This document shows, in pieces, positions 12,139 to 13,416 of a stretch of 64,000 nt of DNA; the stretch's first letter is position 1; each line of letters starts with the position of its first letter. The notes beneath the pieces were generated by a model that saw nothing but the letters and a program-made list of their open reading frames with translations, ran no database searches and was not told the DNA's origin. The position numbers were made by a program, and so were the translations under genes. The stretch is from Isoetes taiwanensis (Eukaryota; Streptophyta; Lycopodiopsida; Isoetales; Isoetaceae). The stretch covers positions 19,379,418-19,443,417 of the forward strand of contig JAJEKV010000010.1 of NCBI GenBank assembly GCA_021234155.1. Direction: 5' to 3'.

Positions 12139-13416
12139 ATGATGGCCCGCACGGCTGCATCGCAAGGAAGCCTAGCCGGCGGATCCTCCAGCGCCAGCTG
12201 CCCGCTTTGTTCATAGGATTCTTCTAGAACGCCTTCTCCGCTGCCGACGGATCTTCGCCGAGCCGAAGAATCGTGGTCGGACAGAGCTAACCATACTGAG
12301 ATCTTGGAGGACGATCGGGCCGACGCCATGAGCTTTGTGATCCTCAATGAAATTGAACGGCAGGAGGCGAAGCGAGCAAAGCAGCGGAGCAACACTGTGG
12401 GGACGCCAACCCACAGAGGAGGAGCAGAGGGAACAGTGAACCCACCCATAGGCCAAGAACAACCCCAGATGAGATCCACCCTGCAGGGAGGAGCAGGTAG
12501 GAGAGGAGCAGCAGCCGCCGGAACTCACCCCGAGGAAGAGGCCGACCTAGCCCGCCGGTCCATAAGTAACGGTCAAAGAGCGCCACGGGAGCAGAGATCA
12601 AAGGATCAGAAGACGCCGGGGACCCAAGAAGAGGAGGGCCAAGGCCGCCAAGGCGTGCAAGAGGAAGCCGGGTGAAGGTTGGGAAGAGAGCCGGTCCGGC
12701 CATCAACGAGCCGCCGGGAGGGGAGACCCCCACCACCGACGCATTCGACCAAGACTACGCGCCGGGCGCAGATGGGGCGAGCTCTTCAAAGCCCCCGGTT
12801 GTAGAGGAAGAGGTGCACGAGCAGACGGCCCAAGAGCAGGAGGAGGCCGGGCAGGTGGCGAAGCCCCCACCATTTCCGACGTGGGATAGGGTCAAGGCCC
12901 CACGGCCGCAGCGGGAAGCCTACGTGATAGACCCCTTAAAGGTCTATGAGAAGAGAATGAGGGAGCACAACGCATATATGGCGAAGTGGGAGGCCTACAA
13001 CACCTATTACCAGGAACACCGGGTGAGAACAATTGAAGGCGGCACCGAACCTAAGAGCCGTGACACTAAAGCCCCCTCCACCAAAACCCAAGGCCCCACG
13101 AGCACCCGGGAAGAAGCGGAGCAAGAAGAAACAGGAGGAAGACAGGGCACTCAAGGAGATCCGCCACTTCCAGAAAAGTTACGGACTCCTGATTCCACGG
13201 GCGCCGTTCCAGCGTCTGGTCCGCGAAGTCATCCAAGAATACAACACGGACATGCGCGTGACAGACGAGATGTTGCTGTGTTTGCAGGAGGCGGCCGAAG
13301 CCCACTTGGTGAAACATTTTGAAGATTCAACGGCCTGCACAGTGCACGCGAAGAGGGTCACCCTCATGAGGCAGGATATGTATCTTGCCAGACACATCAA
13401 GGGAGAACGCCCTTGA
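12139..13416 (+). pseudogene. Histone H3-like protein gene of element A
   Basis: The start ATGATGGCCCGCAC (MMART) aligns with MARTKQTARK of element 0, but small indels destroy the rest of the tail and an in-frame TAG follows after 25 codons. The following frames encode a long hydrophilic linker rich in Glu, Gln, Pro and Gly, including DPLKVYEKRMREHNAYMAKW near 12930. After a frame change near 13030, 13147-13413 reads ALKEIRHFQKS, PFQRLVREV, LQEAAEAHLV, FEDSTACTVHAKRVTLMRQD and IKGERP, followed by a stop. This matches the H3 fold in order: alphaN (ALREIRRYQKS), alpha1 (PFQRLVREI), alpha2 (LQEA), loop 2 (FED...HAKRVT) and the GER end. Loop 1 has the canonical H3 length, not the longer loop usual in CENH3. 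The ORF would be about 420 codons against 136 for H3, the extra length lying between tail and fold. Confidence 0.85.

What the first reader, a model, noticed from the sequence alone, without database searches (positions are those of the whole stretch)
12139..13416. A chromodomain retrotransposon that carries its own histone H3 gene
Seen: elements A and B encode an H3 histone fold (PFQRLVREV, LQEAAEAHLV, FEDSTACTVHAKRVTLMRQD, IKGERP), always between the leader and ORF2 of a Ty3/gypsy element with a chromodomain integrase; copy R keeps a remnant. Element 0 keeps the ORF start at the same place. Known: histones are core chromatin proteins and chromoviral chromodomains bind modified H3 tails. Inference: an ancestral element captured a host H3 gene and kept it as a cargo gene, possibly to package its cDNA, mark insertion sites or interfere with silencing. 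I know of no description of such an element.
Basis: partly seen in the sequence, partly recalled or inferred. Interest (0 to 1): 0.97.

Follow-up and report, generated by a model that had tools for sequence, protein, structure and literature searches.

The report
Jumping gene carrying histone H3 gene
A large family of plant jumping genes, probably in a quillwort, carries its own long-tailed version of histone H3, the protein on which plant cells package and silence DNA, and selection has kept that gene's sequence.

Summary
Copy A (12139-13416) ends in a histone H3 fold (PF00125, E 7e-28). The window also holds copy B, remnant R, and element 0, whose gene starts MARTKQTARK. A lies in a complete Ty3/gypsy chromodomain element (LTRs, PBS, PPT, TSD). 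Host: most likely Isoetes taiwanensis, inferred from assembly size. A degenerate codon pattern for the H3 core matches 3127 places in the genome, host genes included; reversed control 0. Of 58 such sites on the contigs compared, 32 have the integrase motif downstream on the same strand, 25 at 5.85-6.44 kb; random mean 2.8. Of 20 loci picked by the neighbouring ORF2, 19 have H3 upstream. Selection on the fold is strong (pN/pS 0.02-0.20). At least two deep H3 types exist: A/B has ARTKQTARK, a long charged insert and a divergent fold; F2/F3 has another N-domain and a near-canonical fold. Copy A itself is interrupted. Likeliest role: an element-made nucleosomal H3 that alters silencing or target choice; function is inferred, untested. 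My ten listed literature searches showed no earlier description.

The parts
9697..11509 (+). 5' LTR of element A (1813 bp, TG...CA)
   Evidence: LTR alignment; K2P to 3' LTR 0.114
9692..9696 (.). target-site duplication TGCAT, left copy (right copy 23359-23363)
11512..11523 (+). primer-binding site TGGTATCAGAGC (tRNA-iMet type; identity of tRNA recalled)
11713..11963 (+). two ~70-nt inverted repeats (TGTCTCACA...GTGAGACC type, imperfect) upstream of the H3 promoter
   Evidence: 69 such hairpins in 30 of 30 A-type loci
12036..12043 (+). TATA box (TATAAATA) of the H3 gene, 103 nt before its first ATG
   Evidence: 106-114 nt in the 14 of 30 A-type loci where both could be placed
12139..13416 (+). 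H3 gene of copy A, interrupted in its N-terminal part; histone fold 13147-13413 open
13557..13815 (+). second pair of inverted repeats, upstream of the ORF2 promoter
13999..14006 (+). TATA box of ORF2
   Evidence: TATA box about 122 nt before ORF2 in 19 of 20 ORF2-picked loci
14123..15600 (+). ORF2 of copy A, interrupted; function unknown (3' end approximate; tblastn match ends at 15470)
   Evidence: tblastn with B ORF2
15823..20610 (+). gag-pol of copy A (capsid, protease, RT, RNase H, integrase), interrupted
20434..20592 (+). chromodomain at the integrase C-terminus
   Evidence: PF00385 E 7.1e-11
21487..21499 (+). polypurine tract AAGGTGGGGAGAA (one T inside)
21500..23358 (+). 3' LTR of element A (1859 bp)
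38776..39087 (+). H3 fold of copy B; the 5' part of the gene is missing
39232..39500 (+). pair of inverted repeats upstream of ORF2 in B
39691..39698 (+). TATA box of ORF2 in B
39813..41298 (+). ORF2 of B, in two overlapping frames (39813-40607 and 40570-41298)
41535..46807 (+). gag-pol of B (gag 41535-42680, PR-RT-RH-IN 42631-45579, rest 46066-46807, interrupted)
6798..7160 (+). element 0: TATA box and about 84 codons of the H3 gene (MARTKQTARKRRPG...) from 6906 (3' end approximate)
2798..2920 (-). remnant R: last 41 residues of the H3 fold with one stop, followed by spacer and inverted repeats

Best explanation
SHOWN: a lineage of Ty3/gypsy chromodomain LTR retrotransposons carries, before gag, a gene for a long-tailed histone H3, usually followed by a second gene (ORF2). 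In the A/B type each of the two genes has a TATA box at a set distance and inverted repeats upstream. The H3 gene is an inherited part of the element: same place, thousands of motif matches, strong purifying selection on the fold. INFERRED: the protein is made from its own promoter, pairs with host H4 and enters host or proviral nucleosomes; the tight constraint on the fold fits an obligate multi-contact assembly. There the element swaps the part of H3 through which the host writes silencing: the region before the fold is 328-370 residues in the nine copies measured (46 in normal H3, recalled) and in A/B copies with a preserved start keeps ARTKQTARK (K4, K9) without S10. Most likely this loosens or misdirects silencing of new element copies, or marks them as targets or non-targets.
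For: Fold: helices in the H3 order; mean pLDDT only 60.8; Foldseek: the 50 listed of 191 are nucleosomal H3 entries; TM about 0.42, rmsd 7-21. Inheritance: ORF2 match in 42 of 45 against 0 of 15 host loci; 19 of 20 in the reverse direction; integrase motif downstream in 32 of 58, random mean 2.8, maximum 10 in 1000 draws; four 9.5-kb stretches picked for long open H3 frames all show gag after H3, with RT and integrase in three, ORF2 between in three. Abundance: 3127 exact matches, control 0. Selection: A against B differences 20/16/61 by codon position in 103 codons; pooled pN/pS of the fold 0.042 (A-type, 435 pairs), 0.073 (F2), 0.024 (F3), host H3 0.059; 0.200, or 0.154 without two frameshifted copies, in the ORF2-picked set; tail dN/dS 0.13-0.25 among 4 long A-type frames. 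Tail: exact MARTKQTARK in 7 of 30 A-type loci, then P (6) or L (1); element 0 has R there. Recalled contact residues R69, R72, R83, C110, H113, K115, R116, T118, D123, L126 are unchanged in the A fold. Region before the fold.
Against: No expression, localisation or assembly data. Copy A is interrupted, and 23 of 30 A-type loci lack an exact MARTKQTARK start, so many copies make no full product. The families differ: the F2/F3 starts seen lack ARTKQTARK, so no single tail mechanism fits all. In A/B, R63->P, K64->R, L65->A, K122->Q, R129->H and EMLL at the 87-90 chaperone site (recalled numbering) could impair normal deposition. The locus sets were picked by similarity to H3 and favour intact copies. 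68 of 100 integrase-motif sites have no exact H3 motif upstream.
Confidence: 0.6

Rival explanations
1. The H3 protein packages the element's own cDNA or RNA inside particles or the preintegration complex, as a condensing factor, rather than acting on host chromatin.
For: The gene is in the same element as the structural genes; long, highly charged tail; a histone fold binds nucleic acid (recalled).
Against: H3 alone does not wrap DNA (recalled), and I saw no other histone gene in the element; conserved contact residues suggest work with host histones; H3 has its own TATA box and is not fused to gag.
Confidence: 0.17
2. Beacon model: element H3 is placed on element copies, gets K9-methylated and attracts the chromodomain of the element's integrase, steering new copies into old ones (safe sites).
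For: Some A/B copies keep ARTKQTARK without S10; chromodomains are reported to target integration into heterochromatin by recognising histone modifications (background passage of PMC2864245); the window holds several element copies close together.
Against: The chromodomain's best match is a Chd1 chromodomain, and by recalled HP1 cage positions only the tryptophan of the three aromatics is present; the F2 element L032 has the chromodomain but no ARTKQTARK start.
Confidence: 0.15
3. The A/B H3 is a captured centromeric H3 (CENH3) and directs the element to, or makes, centromeric chromatin.
For: ALKEIRHFQK, LLIPRAPF and RVTLMRQD resemble a recalled Arabidopsis CENH3.
Against: Loop 1 has canonical H3 length and no RW, whereas the rows that I took as CENH3-like have a longer loop 1 and most have RW or QW; none of the 60 chains listed of 179 is named CENP-A; the tree leaves A/B outside. 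Genes and repeats of I. taiwanensis are reported as evenly spread (PMC8566536, passage). The host's own CENH3 was not looked for.
Confidence: 0.05
4. Passive hitch-hiking: a processed H3 copy was caught once and is only carried along.
For: Many copies are interrupted; gene capture by plant LTR elements is described (PMC7264820, passages).
Against: Third-position excess and low pN/pS; several families with the gene at the same place.
Confidence: 0.02

Closest known systems
Chromoviruses (Ty3/gypsy LTR retrotransposons with an integrase chromodomain), including those of ferns, lycophytes and mosses in PMC2864245 (passages)
   Same: LTRs, PBS, PPT, TSD, gag-PR-RT-RH-IN order, C-terminal chromodomain
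   Different: Two extra genes with TATA boxes before gag, one a histone H3; clade within chromoviruses not assigned here. In the passages seen of PMC2864245, Isoetes histrix is among species tested by PCR and the one 'histone' hit concerns chromodomain targeting.
Additional ORFs and captured host domains in plant LTR retrotransposons (PMC7264820, passages; PMC9289625, listing and start of abstract: m6A demethylase domain in orchid Ty3/gypsy)
   Same: A host-type gene or domain fixed in a Ty3/gypsy lineage
   Different: 'histone' has 0 occurrences in the main text of PMC7264820; the orchid domain is a demethylase
Single viral H3 and H4 histones of DNA viruses (PMC9145170, passages and section 9; PMC5423620, listing and start of abstract)
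   Same: One core histone with conserved fold and, in several, an extended tail, thought to enter host nucleosomes; the 87-90 site reads SAIL or TAIL in three viral H3s there and FAIL/HAIL in F2/F3 elements
   Different: DNA viruses, N-terminal extensions of 35 to about 170 residues; here a retrotransposon in thousands of genomic copies with 328-370 residues before the fold. 'retro' has 0 word-start occurrences in the main text of PMC9145170
High-copy long-tailed H3 families in unnamed ENA contigs (P0121, P0123 and relatives)
   Same: MARTKQTARK start in P0121, P0123 and P0129; about 290-330 residues before the Pfam match; up to 212 member sequences
   Different: Tail not recognisably related by eye; fold nearer to canonical H3; source and genomic context unknown
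CENH3 / CENP-A
   Same: Divergent fold with LLIP.APF-like and TLM motifs, long divergent tail
   Different: No loop-1 insertion, no RW

Membership tests
Chromovirus (Ty3/gypsy, Metaviridae) | LTRs with TG...CA, PBS, PPT and TSD | tested here: met
   element A
Chromovirus (Ty3/gypsy, Metaviridae) | gag and pol with PR-RT-RH-IN order | tested here: met
Chromovirus (Ty3/gypsy, Metaviridae) | chromodomain at integrase C-terminus | tested here: met
   PF00385 in A (7.1e-11), L032 (6.3e-8), P0159 (3.2e-8)
Chromovirus (Ty3/gypsy, Metaviridae) | chromodomain able to read methylated H3 | tested here: inconclusive
   one of three cage aromatics by recalled HP1 positions; best match a Chd1 chromodomain
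Histone H3 | H3-type histone fold with alpha-N helix | tested here: met
Histone H3 | N-terminal tail ARTKQTARKS | tested here: inconclusive
   residues 1-9 kept in 7 of 30 A-type loci and in element 0, S10 in none of these 8; absent from the F2/F3 starts seen
Histone H3 | assembles with H4 into nucleosomes | not testable with these tools
   contact residues conserved (recalled numbering)
CENH3 / CENP-A | longer loop 1 | tested here: not met
   alignment
CENH3 / CENP-A | W in place of F84 (RW motif) | tested here: not met
   RV in A/B, RF in F2/F3
CENH3 / CENP-A | localises to centromeres | not testable with these tools
   no chromatin data
Tat/Ogre-type elements with an extra ORF before gag (recalled) | no chromodomain | tested here: not met
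   chromodomain present
Single viral H3 histones of DNA viruses | encoded by a DNA virus genome | tested here: not met
   encoded in an LTR element; no IMG/VR match for A H3

The most novel reading that the evidence does not exclude
A retrotransposon lineage has turned a core histone into one of its own genes. It has at least two anciently diverged H3 types with different N-terminal domains and its own promoters, and uses the protein to write its own chromatin state against host silencing: a retroelement-encoded histone variant system, possibly paralleled in another organism by the high-copy MARTKQTARK families P0121/P0123.
Probability: 0.5. Interest if true: 0.97.

Novelty: new variant of a known kind. 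Interest (0 to 1): 0.94.

Why it matters
Host silencing of transposons is written on histone H3. An element that brings its own H3, with the fold under strong selection and the tail rebuilt, would be a counter-silencing or targeting strategy that I found described for no retroelement in the sources searched, and a natural experiment on which parts of H3 are dispensable. With over 3000 motif matches in one genome it also offers a large natural set of H3 variants. Such elements may be missed in annotation: the Isoetes taiwanensis repeat library was purged of repeats with BLASTx similarity to plant proteins (PMC8566536, passage).

Tried and rejected
Processed H3 pseudogene or chance reading: rejected. 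CENH3 capture: considered because of LLIPRAPF and TLMRQD; rejected as membership on loop 1 and RW. Fern/Ceratopteris host: considered from P0021; dropped when assembly size and sequence number fitted I. taiwanensis (1,658,258,908 bases in 1110 contigs; 1658.30 Mb, 204 scaffolds plus 909 contigs). ORF2 function: no Pfam match over cut-off for the pieces tried; AlphaFold model of one piece useless (mean pLDDT 38.3). Relatives in IMG/VR: none for A H3 or P0121. The tree (40 rows, 11 of 36 inner branches starred, bootstrap not settled) does not decide whether A/B and F2/F3 H3 have one origin. pol pN/pS as a control was blurred by dead, frameshifted copies (0.18-0.75), so 'H3 is more constrained than pol' is not claimed. 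Genome-wide count of the MARTKQTARK start: asked eleven times, never answered. An 'acidic' tail, first impression, was wrong: D+E and K+R are about equal. The phrase hit (PMC4417967) is about H3 methylases, not a retrotransposon gene.

Full report
WHAT IS THERE. The finding was checked first on the raw sequence. The reading frame 13033-13416 (+) contains ALKEIRHFQKSYGLLIPRAPFQRLVREV...HAKRVTLMRQDMYLARHIKGERP and matches PF00125 over profile positions 16-122 at E 7e-28. Its best solved relatives are nucleosomal H3 proteins. A tblastn of this frame against the window finds copy B (38776-39084, E 2e-50) and remnant R (2920-2798, E 2e-15); the next match is at E 0.10. The stated start, 12139, is the gene start in copy A, but A's N-terminal part is interrupted by a stop and frame changes, so A itself makes no full protein.

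THE ELEMENT. Copy A lies in a complete LTR retrotransposon: LTRs 9697-11509 and 21500-23358 (1785 aligned sites, K2P 0.114), TG...CA ends, 5-bp duplication TGCAT on both sides, PBS two bases after the 5' LTR, polypurine tract before the 3' LTR. Inside, in one orientation: a leader; two inverted repeats; TATA box 12036; H3 gene 12139-13416; two inverted repeats; TATA box 13999; ORF2 from 14123; gag and pol; chromodomain at the integrase end. B has the same order from its H3 fold on. A second gypsy element on the minus strand (about 27-37.8 kb) is only 30-35% similar in pol to P0159, and the H3 search found nothing significant in it.

THE HOST GENOME. The window's genome (G000) has 1,658,258,908 bases in 1110 contigs. 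The published Isoetes taiwanensis assembly has 1658.30 Mb in 204 scaffolds plus 909 contigs (PMC8566536, passages). I take the host to be this quillwort; this is inference. That paper and the I. sinensis genome paper (PMC10541799, passages) contain 'histone' 0 times in the main text. The former removed from its repeat library repeats with BLASTx similarity to plant proteins, which could have removed these elements.

HOW MANY. A degenerate pattern for HAKRVT[I/L/M]M matches 3127 places exactly (1604 + 1523), reversed control 0; host H3 genes are among them. The Pfam and A-type searches scored 150 candidates each out of 8705 and 9940 first-look candidates; all 150 matched in both. The first 15 of the Pfam list are host-type H3 genes (normal tail inspected for L001 and L014; folds of all 15).

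IS H3 PART OF THE ELEMENT. Three tests. (a) H3-picked: of 45 element-type H3 loci with short flanks (L016-L030, L035-L064; L035 is copy A), 42 have an ORF2 match. In 41 it is downstream at a spacing of 243-294 nt (F2/F3, 12 loci) or 509-720 nt (A-type, 29 loci); in L058 the match is displaced; L020, L026 and L027 have none. 0 of 15 host H3 loci have one. (b) ORF2-picked, blind to H3: 20 loci taken down the list of 145 ORF2 hits. 19 of 20 have an H3 fold upstream, in 17 of them 709-735 nt before ORF2 (two matches are cut short), and 19 of 20 have a TATA box about 122 nt before ORF2. (c) Position lists of two exact patterns, overlapping for contigs C1-C70: of 58 H3 sites 32 have the integrase motif GFMKTYFK downstream on the same strand within 15 kb, 25 of them at 5.85-6.44 kb. 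1000 random placements over the contig spans give a mean of 2.8 and a maximum of 10; 6 of 58 have an integrase motif in any other arrangement. Seen from the integrase, 32 of 100 sites have the exact H3 motif upstream. Each motif is a 24-mer that decays, so 32% is a lower bound, but the integrase motif (4860 genome-wide) may also cover relatives without H3. Four longer stretches picked for long open H3 frames (L031-L034) all have gag after H3; RT and integrase are seen in three (L031 matches only through gag-protease); ORF2 lies between in three (not L032).

FAMILIES. At least three. A/B type: four long open frames give 417-427 residues from MARTKQTARK on, with 328-338 highly charged residues before the fold (56-67 D+E, 57-65 K+R), and end in a fold 58-60% identical to host H3. 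F2: 434-459 residues from MPRFKLTVDL or MSRFKLTIDL, 345-370 before the fold, fold 84-85% identical to host. F3: 451 residues from METPKQVYTR or METPKQVYKR, 362 before the fold, fold 88%. By eye F2 and F3 share a stretch (RIPYPxFxxNERFxxKLN) that A/B lack. The 87-90 chaperone site (recalled numbering) reads SAVL (11), TAVL (3) or HAVL (1) in 15 host folds, FAIL (13) or FALL (1) in 14 F2, HAIL in 3 F3 and EMLL in 30 A-type loci and B; three viral H3s in PMC9145170 read SAIL or TAIL there (section 9). The tree groups F2+F3 (92/82) and A+B (99/96) but does not show one origin for both, nor exclude it.

SELECTION. A against B: 20, 16 and 61 differences at codon positions 1, 2 and 3 in 103 codons; dN 0.20, dS 1.49 by LWL85 and saturated by NG86, while the spacer downstream is 64.5% identical. 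Pooled pN/pS of the fold: A-type 0.042 (435 pairs), F2 0.073 (66), F3 0.024 (3), host H3 0.059 (10 pairs of 5 loci). These sets were picked by H3 similarity. The ORF2-picked set, free of that bias, gives 0.200 over 20 sequences including B, or 0.154 after dropping two frameshifted ones; 4 of those 20 have a stop in the matched part. Tail dN/dS in 4 long A-type frames is 0.13-0.25. So the protein has been selected through many rounds of transposition.

TAIL. Of 30 A-type loci, 14 have a readable M-x-R-T start; 7 keep MARTKQTARK exactly, followed by P (6) or L (1); element 0 has R there. K4 and K9 are present, S10 is not. The A-type loci were chosen by the fold, so the missing starts probably reflect frame changes and substitutions in ageing copies.

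HOW IT MAY WORK. Shown: inherited gene, TATA box at a set distance, fold under strong constraint, rebuilt tail. Inferred: expression, pairing with host H4, entry into nucleosomes, effect on silencing or targeting. I rate: gene identity and membership in the element 0.97; nucleosome entry 0.75; anti-silencing or target-marking role 0.45. The chromodomain link is weaker than it looks: best match a Chd1 chromodomain (E 2.7e-6; in the two-domain chain the second domain matches), and only one of three recalled cage aromatics.

KNOWN OR NEW. Ten full-text searches of the held PMC library gave no description of a retrotransposon carrying a histone gene in their listings (titles and starts of abstracts; papers listed of papers found: 20 of 20; 1 of 1; 20 of 105; 7 of 7; 15 of 40; 8 of 21; 12 of 413; 6 of 18; 0; 0). 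Passages or sections of seven papers were looked at. Most subscription papers and all bioRxiv preprints are outside the library. In the protein database, A's H3 has no listed hit above 64% identity among the best 120 of 5925 (70-222 residues long; those opened are canonical H3s, tandem fusions or H3 variants); the longer query found 37 hits, the best 59% over 36% of the query. The nearest gag-pol is P0159, 80% over 99% of the B ORF, on a 4999-bp contig of unnamed source. I file the element as a chromovirus with a new cargo, so 'new variant of a known kind'; the function, if the inference holds, would have no described parallel among retroelements in what I searched.

Noticed in passing
P0121, P0123, P0124, P0129, P0131, P0136: Other long-tailed H3 proteins of 387-438 aa (exact MARTKQTARK start in P0121, P0123, P0129), with 3 to 212 member sequences, on ENA contigs of unnamed source; perhaps a second repetitive-element H3. 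No IMG/VR match for P0121.
   Followed up: partly
11713-11963, 13557-13815, 39232-39500, 2364-2585, 6504-6702: Pairs of ~70-nt palindromes (TGTCTCACA...TGTGAGACC type) before the cargo promoters; 69 in 30 of 30 A-type loci; arm differences between A and B keep pairing (CACACG/CGTGTG against CACAGC/GCTGTG). Role unknown.
   Followed up: partly
14123-15600 and 39813-41298: ORF2: a second conserved cargo gene (open frames up to about 515-547 aa) with no Pfam match over cut-off; 145 scored copies at 74-100% identity. Not found between H3 and gag in L032.
   Followed up: partly
26775-37805: A different gypsy-type element on the minus strand with LTR-like repeats 26775-27132 and 37459-37805 (95% identical), next to copy B.
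   Followed up: no
7405-8097 (-) and 56401-57219 (-): Two related NIF/FCP1-type phosphatase genes on either side of the element-rich stretch; the first matches PF03031 at 1.9e-16, the second seen in the ORF list only.
   Followed up: no
P0126, P0128, P0132, P0133: H3 proteins with C-terminal extensions of roughly 90-130 residues and a PFARLVREIAG motif; source unnamed.
   Followed up: no
61088-61413: Two tandem copies of a 163-bp repeat, 98% identical.
   Followed up: no
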